DNA from: Elusimicrobiaceae bacterium
Lineage (GTDB): Bacteria; Elusimicrobiota; Elusimicrobia; Elusimicrobiales; Elusimicrobiaceae
Direction of reading: 5' to 3'
Length of the DNA: 38,292 nt
Assembly: GCA_017646765.1 (NCBI GenBank)
Contig: JAGCMD010000026.1
Location: forward strand, 1 to 38,292
Shown piece after piece: positions 2,717 through 34,017 of the stretch. A program made the translations under genes and the position numbers. How positions within the stretch are numbered: position 1 is the stretch's first letter; every line of letters starts with the position of its first letter. The notes beneath the pieces were generated by a model that worked only from the letters and a program-made list of their open reading frames with translations, did not search any database and had not been told where the DNA came from.

Positions 2717-2722
2717 ATGACT

Positions 2723-3895
2723 ATGGAAAACGAAAATTCTTTAGACACCACCGGTGAGTATTTCCGTCAGTTGGGCCAAGTGGCCCACGAACTGGACCGG
2801 GCCGAAATAGCCAAATTATGGGCTCAGGCCAAAAAAGGCAACGAAAAAGCCAAACATAAATTGTTGGAGATGAATTTGCGGCTTGTTATTCCGGCGGCGA
2901 AGCGGTTTTTGCGTCCCGGGATGGAACTGATGGATTTAGTAGAAGAAGGCAATTTGGGTTTGTTGCAAGCGATCCAAAAATTTGAGCCGGCTAAAGGATA
3001 TCGTTTTTCTACGTATGCGGTGTATTGGATAGAGCAGTATATCCGCAAATATATAGAAGAACAGACCGGTTCTATTAAAATTCCGTCGCATGCTTGGGGG
3101 AACCTCAAACGTTGGTTTCGTGCGTGGAACGAGCTGAAAGAAACCAACGGGCGCGATCCGTCATTGCGGGAAATGGCGCAAGAGCTGGATTTGTCTGCCC
3201 GGCAGGTAAAATCTATCGTGGATACGATTAACGCCGCTCGCGGGGTAGATTCCCTAGCTACTACCGTCCACGCAGAGGAAGACCTAACCCTGGAAGATTT
3301 AATCAGTGATGACGGAAAAGGGAACCCGCATGATGTGTTTTTACATCAAGAAGATCAAAACACGCTCAAGCAAAGCATGGCCAGTTTAAATGACCGGGAC
3401 CGTCAGATTATTATCTTGCGTTATGGGCTGGATGATAATGCGCCTAAAACATTGGGAGAAGTGGCGGAAGAGTTGGGGCTCTCGCGTGAGCGGGTACGCC
3501 AAATTGAGACGCGTGCCATTGCGGCCTTACGGCGGGAAGCGCGCAAAGCCGGTATCATAGAAACTACAGAAGAAAATTTCCGTACCCGTAATTTACATAG
3601 TGCTATGCGTCCGAAAGCTAAAACCAATATTTTGGGTGAACAAGTGCGCGCACGCAGCGGTTTGCTGCACCTGTTGGACCAAGCGGCTGCCAAGGCAAAA
3701 AAACAAGCCGCTATGAAAAATAAAAAGAAAGTTGCTGCCAAAAAAGCTGTCCGTGCTTCTAAGAAAACAATAAAATCGGTGCAAAAGAAATCTGTACGCA
3801 CACCGAAAAAAACAGTCAAAAAGAGCGTTGCTAAAAAAGCACTCAAAAATAAAGCGATTAAAAAAACGAGCCGTAAAGCTGCCCGTAAAAAATAA
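2723..3895 (+). CDS. Sigma-70 family RNA polymerase sigma factor with histone H1-like C-terminal tail
   Basis: A 390-residue protein. Residues 5-20 resemble region 1.2. Region 2 follows (about 45-125), with the -10-binding segment ending RFSTYAVYWIEQYIRKYI; then region 3 (about 130-200) and region 4 (about 225-280), which has the helix-turn-helix TLGEVAEELGLSRERVRQIE. This places it with RpoD/RpoS-type group 1/2 factors, without the large region 1.1 and non-conserved insert of RpoD; RpoH is less likely. The last 67 residues (324-390, bases 3692-3892) are low complexity with about 27 Lys and 4 Arg, built from repeated KKA/KKT/KKS units, like bacterial histone H1-like proteins. ATG 2717 is also in frame, but 2723 fits the -10 spacing. 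It may be the main or a stationary-phase sigma factor; the sequence does not settle which. Confidence 0.87.
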   Translation: MENENSLDTTGEYFRQLGQVAHELDRAEIAKLWAQAKKGNEKAKHKLLEMNLRLVIPAAKRFLRPGMELMDLVEEGNLGLLQAIQKFEPAKGYRFSTYAVYWIEQYIRKYIEEQTGSIKIPSHAWGNLKRWFRAWNELKETNGRDPSLREMAQELDLSARQVKSIVDTINAARGVDSLATTVHAEEDLTLEDLISDDGKGNPHDVFLHQEDQNTLKQSMASLNDRDRQIIILRYGLDDNAPKTLGEVAEELGLSRERVRQIETRAIAALRREARKAGIIETTEENFRTRNLHSAMRPKAKTNILGEQVRARSGLLHLLDQAAAKAKKQAAMKNKKKVAAKKAVRASKKTIKSVQKKSVRTPKKTVKKSVAKKALKNKAIKKTSRKAARKK

Positions 3896-3900
3896 TTTTT

Positions 3901-3974
3901 GCCCCCGTAGCTCAATTGGATAGAGCGATTCCGTCCTAAGGAAGAGGTTGCGAGTTCAACTCCCGCCGGGGGTA
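3901..3974 (+). tRNA. tRNA-Arg (anticodon CCU)
   Basis: Cloverleaf: acceptor GCCCCCG/CGGGGGT with discriminator A, D-stem GCTC/GAGC, anticodon loop GTCCTAA giving CCU, and T-loop TTCAACT in a short T-arm. No CCA is encoded. It begins five bases after the sigma factor stop codon, so it is probably processed from the same transcript. Confidence 0.9.
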
Positions 3975-3978
3975 TTTC

Positions 3979-4114
3979 TTCCTGTTTTTCTTCCTAAAAA
4001 TAGCCAATTTCGTTGTTGCAAACTTGGTCGGATACCTCCGCGCTACCGCGCGCGTGCCGCCAGTATACCTTCCTCGTTTGCGCCTAGAAATTGACTATTT
4101 TATTTTGAAAAACA
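3979..4114. repeat. Long imperfect inverted repeat (MITE/REP-like), full copy
   Basis: The arms are TGTTTTTC at 3983-3990 with its complement at 4107-4114, and AAAATAGCCAATTTC at 3997-4011 with its complement at 4087-4101 (14 of 15 match). Weaker pairing continues inward through GCAAAC and GGATACC-like segments, giving a foldable element of about 132 bp. The first 71 bp recur at 4205-4275. There are no coding signs. Confidence 0.7.
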
Positions 4115-4204
4115 TTCTCACGCGCGTCCGGAACTGCGTAAAATTAGTTTGAAAACCCGCCTGTTACGATTTATGGGAGATGATAACCGCCCGGGGGTAC
4201 ATTT

Positions 4205-4275
4205 TTCCTGTTTTTCTTCCTAAAAATAGCCAATTTCGTTGTTGCAAACTTGGTCGGATACCTCCGCGCTACCGC
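4205..4275. repeat. Second, half copy of the inverted-repeat element (71-bp direct repeat)
   Basis: Bases 4205-4275 are identical to 3979-4049 (offset 226). It ends exactly where the stop codon of the minus-strand gene 4276-4761 begins. The preceding CGGGGGTA (4192-4199) also matches the 3' end of tRNA-Arg. The 90 bases between the two copies (4115-4204) show no gene. Confidence 0.8.
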
Positions 4276-28488: not shown

Positions 28489-31400
28489 TTAGTAAGCTTG
28501 AGAGTGAGCGGGTGAGGTGCCTTCCTGATAGAACTCCTCATAATCATCCTCACTTTGCGATTGGGACGGGGCGGCCTGCTCCCGGGCAGAAGACGCCTTT
28601 GGCGCAGCAAGCTGATAGAATTTTTCTTCAAATTCGTCCCAGATTTTATTAAGGGCCTGTTGCAAGTCCGTTCTTAAAAATGGGAGTTCATTATTCTCTA
28701 ATTTTCTTAAATAGGAATCTGCTGTTTGTCGTATTTTAGCGGCAAAAGGCTCCGCTTCTTGCGGATATCCCAGTTCTTCAAATGCTTGTTCTATTACGAG
28801 CTGATAGAACAGACACATCCCCTCAATGGCAATCTCAAGTGCTTCGCGTAACAAAGCTGTCTGTTTTTCCTCAGAGAGCGAATTGAACTGTTTGAGCAAT
28901 TCTGTATCGGAGATTTGGTCTATCTGTTTTGCTGCCGGCGAAAGCCCGTAGTCCAAGTAATGTTGTTCGTTTAGCCTGGGAGTAACTTGGCGGTCCAGTT
29001 CCGTTATTTTTTGCATCAATTCTTCCTCCGTTATAGTATCCAGCGAATTTTTCCAGCTGTCAACGGTACTGATTGCATTTTTATAAATATTCAATTTACG
29101 GATCAATCTTATATCTTCTTCCAGTCCGCTGGTGCGATCTTGGTAGTTGTTTATCCAGAAATTTCTCGCCTCTATATTCTGTTCCTGGAAATGGATTTTA
29201 TAATTATAGAGGGTCGTTAACTTGTCTGCTTTTTCGTTGTGCTTTTTGTTTATTACTTCCGCTTGTTCTATTTGTTCCAAACCGCTGCCTTCCAAGTTTT
29301 CAAGATCTTTTTCCCATTGGTCTAATTCTTCGTGGATGGCTTTTAAATCTTGGGCAAAAAGTTTATCTGCGTCGGGCAAAGCTCCGCCATTTGTATAGAA
29401 AAAGGGCGTTTCCACAACCGCACGATAATCGGCTACACCGTCCGCAAGTATCTTCTTAGTCATAACCGCGTGCGTATTCACTAAGAAGTTTTCCTGAGCT
29501 TTTCGGGCGTCTAATTGCTTTTTTAACGCGTCCATCTGTTCGTATATTTTCATATCCATGAGGTGCGTTCCGAACAGTTTATCTATGCCGGCCATTCCGA
29601 GCAGAGCAGGCATTAAAAAGACATCTGCTTCGCGGTCAAGCATATCAAGCACGGGGTCTTTAGGTGTTTTAGGGGCCGCCAATGCCTGAGAAAGCGGATC
29701 CGTCGGTTCTGCTTGTCCCGTTTCCAATAAGGCATTATAGGTTTTCTCCCATTCCGGATCGTTTATCTTTTTAAGAGCTTCTTCTGTTTGTTCTTTTTCC
29801 AAATGTTTTAAGAACATATCTTTGCTCCATCCTGCGGCAGGCCCGTAAATAAATTTCCATTTGGCAAAGAATTTGACGTTTTGGTAGAAGCTTTTAAGTA
29901 AATTACCCGGTTGATTCCACCACAGTTTAGTGAGGGCTCCCGCAGGCATATATCCTTGTTCGGCCATGATATCAGCCGTCAATTTAGTAATGTTTCCGTC
30001 TTCATCTATCAAGCCAAAATTCTTAGCTGTTTGCGTATCTTTTAACAGAGAATTAAGGATGTTAACATCTTTTTCCATCATAGCACTGGCTGCATCCGGG
30101 GTAAATCCGCTAGCCGTTTTTACGTCGGCTTGATATATAAAAGCGTTTTGAAACTCGGTAGCTTCGGCAGCGGAGACGCTTGCTTTTTTGGCGGTAGCTT
30201 TGGAGACCGGTTTGGTAATGGCCACCCGTACTTGCTCGGTTAAGGTATGGGATTCCGGGGCTACACCCGAGTATCTTCCAAACACTTTTTTTTCTGGGCC
30301 TACAAGGATTTCCATCGTTGTTTTACCGTCTTTAGAAGTTATCTTACTTAACAAAGCCTCCGGCTCCCGTTGGAGTGCCTGTAAGACATTTTGCGCATCT
30401 TTAGCACTCACGCGAAGATAAGAATTTCCGCCATCGGCAGATACCCACCAATCTACAGTTTCCGGGTTTTTGGCTAGCGCCCGTGCATACACTTGTTGTG
30501 TTTCTAGGTAAGCGCGGGTTTGGGCACTTACGGCTTCTCCGCTTATGCCGACAGCCAATTCTTCGCTGCCCCAGACGCCAGGCCGCGGCCCAACCGCTTT
30601 CGTAATTACTCGTTCATGCGCCTGAAATTTTTTGGCATTGTTGTAAAATTTTCCCTTGCCTGGGACCAATTTGCCGGCGTACTCCGTTTCAAGTTTTACA
30701 ACAGCTCTATCAGCCGTCTCTATTTCCGTAGAGAGTTTGGTAATAGGTTTGCGGAAGCTTATCAATTTTGGATTATCGTAAACGCTCTGCATTTGATAGA
30801 GGGGCTTTCCCTTTCTAAAAATGAAGTTTCCGTCTTCGTGGAGCGTATATTCCACACCTGTTTTAACCTTTTTGATGCGGCCCGTTTGAGCGCTTGTTTG
30901 AACCACGGGCCGGCCCAACTGCATATCTTTTTGGGCAGTCGTAGCCGCTGCAAGATTAAGGTCACTCCATTTATCAAATTGAGCAATTTTTCTGTTATAC
31001 ATTTTTTTGAACGCACTGAAGAACGTTCGGATGCCGCTGCGCGTGAATGTGAGTGCGCTGTTAGAGGCTTCCCTAAGCGCTCGGATAGAAGTTTGAAATT
31101 CACCGGCGAGGCCCTGGTCTTTGGAGAGGGCTTCGCCGAACCCTTTTTCCAAGTATGCGATGGTTTCTTCCATCTTAGCGGTTGCCGCAGCGAAATCGGC
31201 CTTTTCTCCGGTTTGCCCGGCCTTGGTAAGCAAGTTTTCGGTTTCCGTCAATAACGTTTGCGCTTTTGTATCCGCCTTTAGCGTATTTTTTAAGTTAGCT
31301 GAGGCGGCAGCGGCGGTACTGGCGGCGTTTTCCCAGCGTTGCAATTGCATGGCTTTAGTGGCCACGTTATTTAATCCCGCCGTTGCAGCTGCCAAATCGG

Positions 31401-34017
31401 CGGAGTTCCCGGCTTTTGCCAAAATGGCGGCGGCTTCCCGGCTCTTTTGGGCCGCTTCGCCGTATTTAGCGGCTCTGGCGGCAGCCGTAACTTCTTTTTC
31501 AGCGGCCTTGAAAGCTTGCGTCGCTTCACCCCACAACTTGGAAGCTTGGGGGGCATTTTCGGCCACGTTAGCCATCACTTTATCGGTTTGTATCAAAAGC
31601 TCTTGTGCCTGCATCCCCGCGCGGACTGTTTGAGCTTTGCTAACGAATTTTGCCGTTTTGAAAGCACTCGGCAGGGCTGACGCGGAAACTCGGATCAGGC
31701 GTATGAATTTAAATGTGCCGCTTAATATATACTCAAAGATTTTACCGCCGATTACCCATAATATAGCTTCCCAAACAAGATTGACGGTGCCGGCTAATAC
31801 CTGCAAATCGCTTAAGTAATGATCAAGCGGATTGTTATGATAAATATGGGCCAATTTCCGGTTTCCCTGCCGATCTTTTTGATTGGAGTATATCCAAGAG
31901 CCATAGATTTCATTTTTTAGATTGAATTCTTGGTCAGATTCTTTAGTTGATTTTTCTAATCCGGCGTTTATAAAATTTATGGATATGGGCGGGGCATCTC
32001 GTTGTTCTACAATTTCCGTTAGGGGGCGTCCATCCAAGCCGGGATGAGTGACCGTTTTCATCCGGGGAGCTGTAATGGGAGCAAGCCGGTCTAACGCGTC
32101 GGCCAACGCATCTTGAAGTCTTTCATATCGTTGGATTTCCACATGGTAACCGGAAAAAACACCAACCCTCAATGTCCCGTATTGCTCTTCCGCATGGGCA
32201 TTTAAAAGAACATCTGCAATATTTCTGGCCAGCGAGTCGCGTTGCTGCTGAGTGAAAAAGTAAGGCGCTTGAGCCTCGCGGTTTTTTACCACGGCTTGTT
32301 TATCAGCGCCGGAGAAATCCGCTTGGGTTTTAACAGGGTGTTCCGTTCCTAAATCATGTTTGAGATAAAAGTTCTTACCTGCTACCGACCCGGGATTAAA
32401 GACCTCGGGGAGGGGAACTCGGAGGTCATTGAGCGTAGCTGCCGTCGTAGCAGCCAATATCTTTACGCTGGCACATTTGTTATTGGCGGAGGTTACCAAT
32501 AAATTCTGAATTTTTTTAACGGTAGCTGTGGGAATTTGATTATTTTGGAAATAATAAAGTATTGTGCTAAAGAAAGCCCCTTGGATGTCAAAAAGCAGGT
32601 GGTCTTCTTCGGAGTTCAAAAATTGTTGGTCGCACTCTGGGTTGAATAAATCAAGTACGGCGGGCAAGAAATCGTTGTTTCCTTTAAAGGTAAGTTGATC
32701 GGTTTCTAAAGCATACATAACAGCGTATTGCATAAGCGCGCTGGCAGCGTCTATGGGCATGACCGAGTTTTTACTGCCCGGGGCAAACGCCTTTAATTCG
32801 TTATAGAAATCGGAGGTAAAATCCTCAAATATATGCTCAAAAGAGGTTACCTCGGCAAAATCCTCGTTTCTGCTATACCCCACAATGTGATAGTTGCTGG
32901 GGATATAGGCAAAAGAAGCAACTTGTATCATTTGGTCTAAATGGTCTGTATCAAGCGGATCAAATGCGAAAATATCTTTTCCTTCCGGCCCCTTGAGTAT
33001 TACGGGTTTGGCAAGCGCTTCTTGAAAAACTTTCTCCGGTACGGCCGTATAGCTCTCCTGCGTATTGGTAACAGGAAATTTTTTAATTGGATTGGGTTTA
33101 CCCATCTTTTGATAAAGCTGGTCTAATCTAAACAAGGCCAAACGGTACGAATATCTTTGTAAGAAAGACAGTTGGTCTTGCACCAGAAGGGGGACGTCCG
33201 AGTTTTGCACGAGTTCCAAAGCGTGCAAAACGTGAGCTGTAGCTTGCGGCAAGAGGTCTAAGATAATATCCTGAATATTGGGATCTTGATATTGCTGGGC
33301 TGCCTGCAACGCGCTGACCAATGCTTCGGTAGCATAAACAGAAATATAACGCGCTGCTTTTTTATTCTCATTATTCGGGTTGAATGGAATCTCTCCGCCC
33401 GGATTGTCTATCATTCTCATGAAAGACTCCATTTGCTCTATCCACCCGTCTATGGTTGGCGGTTCTTGGTTTGCAATTTCTTGAAATTTATCAAAGGCAG
33501 CTTGGGCAAAGGCTTCTTCCTTGTTCCTGCGATCTGCCACTGCGGAATCGTTGCGACGGGGCTCCGAGGGTGCTATGGCATCCGCTGGGTGAGTAAGATT
33601 ATCATACGTGGCGCGGACTTCATCATCCCGAACCGGGGAAAGGTCTGAAGTTGCCCTTTGGTACTGCCGGTTCAGGCCCGTTGTCGCGTGCAGGATTTGC
33701 ATATACGAGCCAAAGCTTTCCGCGGCTTTTTCATCACCGGAAGTAAAATCTAAGGTTTCGTATTTGTCCGCTAATTGCATCATGGCCGCTACATACAAGT
33801 CTTCCTTTTCTTGAGCATTTCTGGCATATTTAAAAAAATTCGTCTCATTAAAATAATACGGTTGTGCTTCGCCGTGCGACGGCGCTTGTTGCGCGCGGAG
33901 TGAATACGAGCCATATGGGCCGGCCCGGTCCGCCACTTGTTGCGCGCGGAGTAAATCCGGCGCCACAATATTAAAGGTGAAAACTAAAATTAAAAAACGG
34001 CAGATCCATGTAATCAT
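28489..34017 (-). CDS. Giant exported protein of unknown function (1842 aa)
   Basis: 1842 residues, 14 per cent of the window. A signal peptide covers about residues 1-25 (hydrophobic ILVFTFNIV, then LLRAQQ). Residues 60-550 are helical with HEAT-like pairs (around 225-275 and 490-540). A hydrophobic stretch at about 740-775 (LAGTVNLVWEAILWVIGGKIFEYIL) could be a membrane segment or buried helix. Residues 800-960 are Ala-rich coiled coil with TPR-like spacing. Residues 1050-1260 look beta-rich (HEDGNFIFRKGKPLYQ, WWVSADGGNSYLRVSAKD, ILVGPEKKVFGRYSG). Residues 1560-1800 are charged helices, ending in a Ser/Gln/Glu-rich tail. No catalytic motif is evident. GGAGAA precedes the ATG. It is probably periplasmic or surface-located; I assign no function. 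Confidence 0.8.
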   Translation of the reverse strand: MITWICRFLILVFTFNIVAPDLLRAQQVADRAGPYGSYSLRAQQAPSHGEAQPYYFNETNFFKYARNAQEKEDLYVAAMMQLADKYETLDFTSGDEKAAESFGSYMQILHATTGLNRQYQRATSDLSPVRDDEVRATYDNLTHPADAIAPSEPRRNDSAVADRRNKEEAFAQAAFDKFQEIANQEPPTIDGWIEQMESFMRMIDNPGGEIPFNPNNENKKAARYISVYATEALVSALQAAQQYQDPNIQDIILDLLPQATAHVLHALELVQNSDVPLLVQDQLSFLQRYSYRLALFRLDQLYQKMGKPNPIKKFPVTNTQESYTAVPEKVFQEALAKPVILKGPEGKDIFAFDPLDTDHLDQMIQVASFAYIPSNYHIVGYSRNEDFAEVTSFEHIFEDFTSDFYNELKAFAPGSKNSVMPIDAASALMQYAVMYALETDQLTFKGNNDFLPAVLDLFNPECDQQFLNSEEDHLLFDIQGAFFSTILYYFQNNQIPTATVKKIQNLLVTSANNKCASVKILAATTAATLNDLRVPLPEVFNPGSVAGKNFYLKHDLGTEHPVKTQADFSGADKQAVVKNREAQAPYFFTQQQRDSLARNIADVLLNAHAEEQYGTLRVGVFSGYHVEIQRYERLQDALADALDRLAPITAPRMKTVTHPGLDGRPLTEIVEQRDAPPISINFINAGLEKSTKESDQEFNLKNEIYGSWIYSNQKDRQGNRKLAHIYHNNPLDHYLSDLQVLAGTVNLVWEAILWVIGGKIFEYILSGTFKFIRLIRVSASALPSAFKTAKFVSKAQTVRAGMQAQELLIQTDKVMANVAENAPQASKLWGEATQAFKAAEKEVTAAARAAKYGEAAQKSREAAAILAKAGNSADLAAATAGLNNVATKAMQLQRWENAASTAAAASANLKNTLKADTKAQTLLTETENLLTKAGQTGEKADFAAATAKMEETIAYLEKGFGEALSKDQGLAGEFQTSIRALREASNSALTFTRSGIRTFFSAFKKMYNRKIAQFDKWSDLNLAAATTAQKDMQLGRPVVQTSAQTGRIKKVKTGVEYTLHEDGNFIFRKGKPLYQMQSVYDNPKLISFRKPITKLSTEIETADRAVVKLETEYAGKLVPGKGKFYNNAKKFQAHERVITKAVGPRPGVWGSEELAVGISGEAVSAQTRAYLETQQVYARALAKNPETVDWWVSADGGNSYLRVSAKDAQNVLQALQREPEALLSKITSKDGKTTMEILVGPEKKVFGRYSGVAPESHTLTEQVRVAITKPVSKATAKKASVSAAEATEFQNAFIYQADVKTASGFTPDAASAMMEKDVNILNSLLKDTQTAKNFGLIDEDGNITKLTADIMAEQGYMPAGALTKLWWNQPGNLLKSFYQNVKFFAKWKFIYGPAAGWSKDMFLKHLEKEQTEEALKKINDPEWEKTYNALLETGQAEPTDPLSQALAAPKTPKDPVLDMLDREADVFLMPALLGMAGIDKLFGTHLMDMKIYEQMDALKKQLDARKAQENFLVNTHAVMTKKILADGVADYRAVVETPFFYTNGGALPDADKLFAQDLKAIHEELDQWEKDLENLEGSGLEQIEQAEVINKKHNEKADKLTTLYNYKIHFQEQNIEARNFWINNYQDRTSGLEEDIRLIRKLNIYKNAISTVDSWKNSLDTITEEELMQKITELDRQVTPRLNEQHYLDYGLSPAAKQIDQISDTELLKQFNSLSEEKQTALLREALEIAIEGMCLFYQLVIEQAFEELGYPQEAEPFAAKIRQTADSYLRKLENNELPFLRTDLQQALNKIWDEFEEKFYQLAAPKASSAREQAAPSQSQSEDDYEEFYQEGTSPAHSQAY

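What the first reader, a model, noticed from the sequence alone, without database searches (positions are those of the whole stretch)
3692..3892. Sigma-70 factor fused to a histone H1-like lysine-rich tail
The last 67 residues of the sigma factor hold about 27 Lys and 4 Arg in KKA/KKT/KKS repeats, placed directly after region 4. Region 4 sits at the -35 element, so the tail could bind upstream DNA non-specifically, bridge DNA or couple transcription to nucleoid state. Lys/Ala-rich extensions are known at the N-terminus of some actinobacterial sigma factors; a C-terminal one is, to my knowledge, uncommon. The frame is open to a normal stop.
Basis: partly seen in the sequence, partly recalled or inferred. 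Interest (0 to 1): 0.75.

Follow-up and report, generated by a model that had tools for sequence, protein, structure and literature searches.

The report
Sigma factor with histone-like lysine tail
In a family of gut bacteria, a stress-type RNA polymerase sigma factor ends in a long, floppy, lysine-rich tail like that of histone H1; the tail is kept in every related species checked and probably helps the polymerase hold on to DNA, but nobody has tested it.

Summary
The ORF at 2717-3895 (+) is a 392-aa RpoS-like (group 2) sigma-70 factor of Candidatus Avelusimicrobium (Elusimicrobiota). Its last 67 residues hold 27 Lys, 4 Arg and no Asp/Glu, in frame to a TAA stop. It is not an artefact. All 60 intact, non-identical genus homologues examined carry such a tail (27-98 aa, 32-53% K+R, net charge +11 to +36), while its sequence and length change quickly. 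Tail dN/dS is mostly 0.1-0.4 (core mostly 0.02-0.07), and neutral drift would have erased the charge, so charge itself appears selected. Tailed homologues occur in Elusimicrobium minutum and, probably independently, in about four other Elusimicrobiota lineages; sister families have short basic ends.

One detail is wrong: the tail is not directly after region 4. About 50 residues intervene, with a class-wide conserved module (H-x-G/A-M...KT[N/D]ILG) matching no Pfam or PDB family, then a predicted helix.

Best reading: a disordered polycation that raises non-specific DNA affinity or dwell time of the alternative holoenzyme, like the lysine repeats of Streptomyces TopA. The function is inferred. 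The kind is known from actinobacterial TopA, HupB/HupS, Ku and HrdB; a C-terminal tail on an RpoS-like sigma factor appears undescribed.

The parts
2717..3895 (+). RpoS-like / group-2 sigma-70 factor, 392 aa
   Evidence: Pfam regions 2, 3, 4; best NCBIfam models RpoS 1e-69 and cyano RpoD/SigA 1e-68, both below their cut-offs; a separate RpoD exists at G000:C90
2861..3064 (+). sigma region 2 (PF04542), residues 49-116
3119..3331 (+). sigma region 3 (PF04539), residues 135-205
3377..3532 (+). sigma region 4 (PF04545), residues 221-272
3536..3637 (+). conserved C-terminal module after region 4 (residues 274-307, EARKAGIIETTEENFRTRNLHSAMRPKAKTNILG); G279, L306, G307 invariant in 39 diverse members
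   Evidence: alignments A1/A2; no PDB hit up to E=5 and no Pfam family above cut-off
3659..3718 (+). predicted helix between the module and the tail, residues 315-334 (its end overlaps the first residues of the tail)
   Evidence: AlphaFold2 model m3f7026c93387, helix at model residues 313-332, pLDDT about 76-87 up to model residue 330
3692..3892 (+). Lys-rich, predicted mostly disordered C-terminal tail, residues 326-392 (27 K, 4 R, 0 D/E; net charge +31)
   Evidence: model pLDDT about 48-59 from model residue 331 on
3900..3975 (+). tRNA-Arg(CCT) 4 nt after the stop codon; same strand and place in 14 of 18 genus loci scanned, opposite strand in the other 4

Best explanation
The gene encodes an alternative, RpoS-like sigma factor whose C-terminus has grown, in the Elusimicrobiaceae, into a disordered polycationic tail tethered to region 4 through a conserved linker module and a helix. 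In the promoter complex the tail would lie near the DNA upstream of -35 and bind it through charge alone, raising association rate and dwell time of the alternative holoenzyme (or of free sigma) without changing sequence specificity. Shown here: tail, position, conservation, selection on composition. Inferred: DNA as target, disorder in vivo, effect on transcription.
For: All 60 intact non-identical genus homologues carry the tail, K+R 32-53%, D/E median 2%, net charge +11 to +36. Core dS is often about 1, while simulated neutral drift from this tail gives at 1 substitution/site a net charge of about +6 (-1 to +14), K+R 18%, D/E 8%. Tail dN/dS mostly 0.1-0.4, core mostly 0.02-0.07. KK pairs 4-5 residues apart are about 3 times commoner than in shuffled tails. 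Tail predicted disordered. On the tree the K-tail label needs 8 changes, at least 5 forced by strongly supported branches. Other K-rich C-termini in the sampled genome are mostly on nucleic-acid binders (ribosomal proteins, a DEAD-box helicase). C-terminal lysine repeats of Streptomyces TopA stabilise the enzyme-DNA complex; lysine-rich ends of Ku and mycobacterial HupB are needed for DNA interaction (PMC7398561).
Against: No experiment. A polycation also binds RNA, ribosomes or other polyanions. The genome's HU (92 aa) and TopA lack such tails and RpoD ends without one, so it is not a general DNA-binder feature here. The alpha CTD is present, so the tail is not replacing it. Some family members in genus g14 have only 23-31-residue basic ends.
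Confidence: 0.6

Rival explanations
1. The tail targets the sigma factor to other polyanions (RNA, ribosomes, polyphosphate) and stores or inactivates it, rather than acting at promoters.
For: K-rich C-termini in the sampled genome sit mostly on RNA-binding ribosomal proteins (S20-like, L31-like, L27-like). A paper on polyphosphate-binding proteins in E. coli uses the term lysine-rich (search hit, abstract only, PMC12345225).
Against: Neither PPK1 (PF02503) nor PPK2 (PF03976) is found in the 96%-complete genome, while both ring in control genomes, which argues against the polyphosphate version. RNA or ribosome binding is not excluded.
Confidence: 0.17
2. The tail is a charge-based regulatory handle: an anti-sigma partner, protease adaptor or lysine acetylation acts on it (or on the KT[N/D]ILG module) to switch the factor.
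For: The adjacent module is conserved class-wide, as expected of a binding site. Acetylation of lysine repeats in Streptomyces TopA is proposed in the literature (unpublished remark in PMC7398561).
Against: No partner gene identified; the tail sequence itself is too variable for a specific protein interface.
Confidence: 0.13
3. The tail is a tolerated low-complexity extension under weak constraint only, with no function of its own.
For: Length ranges 27-98 aa and sequence is barely alignable between species; indels are frequent. Lys fraction falls somewhat as local GC rises (rho -0.44), so mutational bias contributes.
Against: Never lost in the 60 intact genus homologues; acidic residues almost excluded (E 1.5%, D 0.2%) although neutral simulation predicts about 8%; repeated growth in separate lineages.
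Confidence: 0.09
4. Assembly or frameshift artefact.
For: None found.
Against: The same architecture in independent assemblies of about 60 species-level genomes and in a single-contig genome of 1,643,562 bp.
Confidence: 0.01

Closest known systems
C-terminal lysine repeats of actinobacterial topoisomerase I (Streptomyces/Mycobacterium TopA)
   Same: Degenerate H1-like Lys-rich repeats at the C-terminus of a DNA-acting enzyme; repeat number varies between species
   Different: Different enzyme and phylum; there the effect on DNA-complex stability and processivity was measured (PMC7398561)
Streptomyces principal sigma factor HrdB with lysine repeats
   Same: Sigma-70 family factor bearing H1-like lysine repeats (stated in PMC7398561)
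   Different: Principal (group 1) sigma; extension is N-terminal (own knowledge); here an RpoS-like factor with a C-terminal tail
HupB/HupS (HU with Lys-rich C-terminal tail) and actinobacterial Ku
   Same: Lys-rich C-terminus needed for DNA interaction (PMC7398561)
   Different: Nucleoid or repair proteins, not promoter-recognition factors; the HU of the window's genome has no tail
RpoS / group-2 sigma-70 factors
   Same: Regions 2, 3, 4 and overall similarity
   Different: Extra C-terminal module plus tail; scores below the curated RpoS cut-off
ECF sigma factors with C-terminal extensions (e.g. ECF41, ECF56)
   Same: Extra C-terminal part after region 4
   Different: Those are folded regulatory domains on ECF factors (PMC3426412, PMC8999054, PMC7730460, titles and abstracts); here a short module and a polycation on a region-3-containing factor

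Membership tests
Sigma-70 family (regions 2, 3, 4) | Pfam regions 2, 3 and 4 above gathering cut-off | tested here: met
   61.1, 50.5 and 69.8 bits, cut-offs 24-25.3
RpoS equivalog | NCBIfam TIGR02394 or NF004207 score above cut-off | tested here: not met
   234.9 against 378.7 and 225.6 against 394; so 'RpoS-like', not RpoS
Primary sigma factor (RpoD, group 1) | It is the genome's RpoD | tested here: not met
   RpoD models below cut-off; a separate long RpoD-type ORF at G000:C90
H1-like lysine-repeat tails | Lys/Ala-rich, acid-poor C-terminus with degenerate KK repeats | tested here: met
H1-like lysine-repeat tails | Tail binds DNA and stabilises the protein-DNA complex | not testable with these tools
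   needs biochemistry
ECF sigma factors with C-terminal extension | Region 3 absent (ECF architecture sigma2-sigma4 only) | tested here: not met
   region 3 present, PF04539 50.5 bits

The most novel reading that the evidence does not exclude
The tail, together with the uncharacterised KT[N/D]ILG module, makes this alternative holoenzyme an architectural promoter complex: the polycation wraps or bridges upstream DNA and couples RpoS-type transcription to nucleoid state, possibly tuned by lysine modification, a mode of sigma action that I know of for no C-terminal extension.
Probability: 0.13. Interest if true: 0.8.

Novelty: new variant of a known kind. Interest (0 to 1): 0.5.

Why it matters
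It shows that lysine-repeat tails, known mainly from actinobacterial DNA-binding proteins, have also been added to the C-terminus of an alternative sigma factor in a different phylum, C-terminal to the -35-binding region, and are kept by selection on charge rather than sequence. If the tail raises holoenzyme-DNA affinity, it would be a simple way for one sigma factor to gain promoter occupancy. What appears to be the cultured species Elusimicrobium minutum has a tailed homologue, so it can be tested.

Tried and rejected
Frameshift or assembly artefact: rejected by about 60 genomes. DNA tandem-repeat slippage array: none detected. Lineage-wide habit of K tails on all DNA binders: rejected, since HU, TopA and RpoD lack them. 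Tail replacing a missing alpha CTD: rejected, the alpha CTD is present. Polyphosphate sensing: weakened, no PPK1 or PPK2 found. Known domain in the linker module: none in Pfam or PDB sequence search. The AlphaFold2 model is poor globally (pTM 0.41) and Foldseek matches are to sigma factors only, with rmsd 17-19 A, so it says nothing on the tail. A count of Lys substitutions in closely related tails (15 pairs) was too small to show avoidance of K-to-E changes by itself (7 of 54); the neutral simulation and the overall composition carry that argument. Papers: none held combined sigma factor, lysine-rich and C-terminal extension, or Elusimicrobia and lysine-rich. Sigma factors of phyla outside Elusimicrobiota were not surveyed for C-terminal K tails.

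Full report
OBSERVATION. The ORF 2717-3895 (+) translates to 392 aa. Pfam finds sigma-70 regions 2 (49-116), 3 (135-205) and 4 (221-272). The best NCBIfam models are RpoS (1e-69) and cyanobacterial RpoD/SigA (1e-68), all below their cut-offs, so the protein is RpoS-like or group 2 without being a formal RpoS. The same genome has a separate RpoD-type gene and a small third sigma-like ORF. Residues 326-392 (3692-3892) contain 27 Lys, 4 Arg and no acidic residue and end at a TAA. In 422 ORF-called genes from about a third of the genome, this is the most Lys-rich C-terminus (40% against a mean of 8%); the next two (30%) look like ribosomal proteins.

ORIGIN. Named relatives are gut Elusimicrobia, including Candidatus Avelusimicrobium excrementipullorum at 71% and Elusimicrobia bacterium UBA1202 at 87% identity. 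The window's genome is therefore assigned to Candidatus Avelusimicrobium or a very close genus (Elusimicrobiaceae, Elusimicrobiota).

CONSERVATION. The sigma factor was found in 87 of 90 family genomes. All 60 intact non-identical genus homologues analysed have a Lys-rich tail: 27-98 residues counted from 18 residues after the ILG motif, 32-53% K+R, D/E median 2%, net charge +11 to +36. The presumed E. minutum has 76 residues after the ILG motif with 24 Lys; genus g14 has basic ends of about 23-78 residues. In the sister family f2 and other families of the class the protein usually ends in a short basic stretch (KKRK, RRKPR...KKK), but L224 (f7), L232 (f8), L237 and L027 (f2) have longer K-rich tails. 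On a tree of the sigma core the K-tail label needs 8 changes, at least 5 forced by strongly supported branches (a quick tree with many weak inner branches, and a threshold-defined label, so the count is approximate). Endomicrobium has an unrelated Arg-rich end.

SELECTION. Between close relatives the post-ILG stretch has dN/dS mostly 0.1-0.4 (a few pairs to 0.6), against mostly 0.02-0.07 for the core. That stretch includes about 18 better-conserved residues next to the module, which lowers its ratio somewhat. A neutral simulation starting from this tail (kappa 2, GC 0.47, stops forbidden) predicts at one substitution per site a net charge near +6, K+R 18% and D/E 8%; the real tails keep +11 to +36 and D/E near 2%. 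KK pairs spaced 4-5 residues apart are about three times as common as in shuffled tails. No DNA tandem array is present. K fraction falls moderately with local GC (rho -0.44, 37 tails), so mutation bias plays some part.

WHAT LIES BETWEEN. The tail does not follow region 4 directly. Residues 274-307 form a module conserved across the class; G279, L306 and G307 are invariant in a diverse set and T303 nearly so. It matches nothing in PDB up to E=5 and no Pfam family above cut-off. AlphaFold2 gives a helix at residues 315-334 (model 313-332) with moderate to good confidence and a low-confidence, extended tail. The global model is poor (pTM 0.41), as expected for free sigma, and Foldseek adds only that the core resembles sigma-S and sigma-A.

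MECHANISM. The most likely function is non-specific electrostatic DNA binding that stabilises the alternative holoenzyme, or free sigma, on DNA. [quoted passage not shown] DNA binding by this tail is not shown. RNA or ribosome binding is the main rival. Polyphosphate is less likely because PPK1 and PPK2 are not found. The tail does not replace the alpha CTD, which is present, and HU, TopA and RpoD of the genome have no such tails.

NOVELTY. Lysine repeats on sigma factors are known for HrdB (PMC7398561) and C-terminal extensions are known for ECF factors, but I found no report of a C-terminal lysine-rich tail on an RpoS-like factor. The library is open-access only and other phyla were not surveyed. 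I rate it a new variant of a known kind.

CONTEXT. The gene lies 3' of an acyl-CoA carboxyltransferase-like gene (named from its sequence, not tested), kept next to it in only some relatives. A tRNA-Arg(CCT) follows the stop by 4 nt and lies on the same strand in 14 of 18 genus loci scanned.

Noticed in passing
L186:7360-8136 (+) (G083, presumed E. minutum): 258-aa protein with about 130 N-terminal residues of H1-like Lys-rich sequence fused to a DksA/TraR C4 zinc finger (PF01258, 5.9e-10); the DksA-like proteins of the window's genus lack the Lys-rich part. A second putative transcription-initiation factor with an H1-like segment in the same family.
   Followed up: partly
window 3976-4049 and 4202-4275: Two 74-nt direct repeats (99% identical) just after the tRNA-Arg, the first with an inverted partner (AAAATAGTCAATTTC) at 4087-4101; three more diverged copies elsewhere in the genome: a small dispersed REP/MITE-like element.
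   Followed up: partly
window 3536-3637 and homologues: Class-wide module after region 4 of the sigma factor (H-x-G/A-M...KT[N/D]ILG; in other families NLQPGW..PK.RTDILGQ.IP.GR) with no known family: a candidate docking motif.
   Followed up: partly
L198:13590-13967 (-), L193:11298-11645 (+), L170:16157-16498 (+): Ribosomal L27-like and L31-like proteins of this family carry C-terminal PAKKA/KKTAAKK tails.
   Followed up: no
window 28489-34017 (-): A 1842-aa ORF beginning with a hydrophobic signal-like segment, no annotation attempted; possibly a large secreted or surface protein.
   Followed up: no
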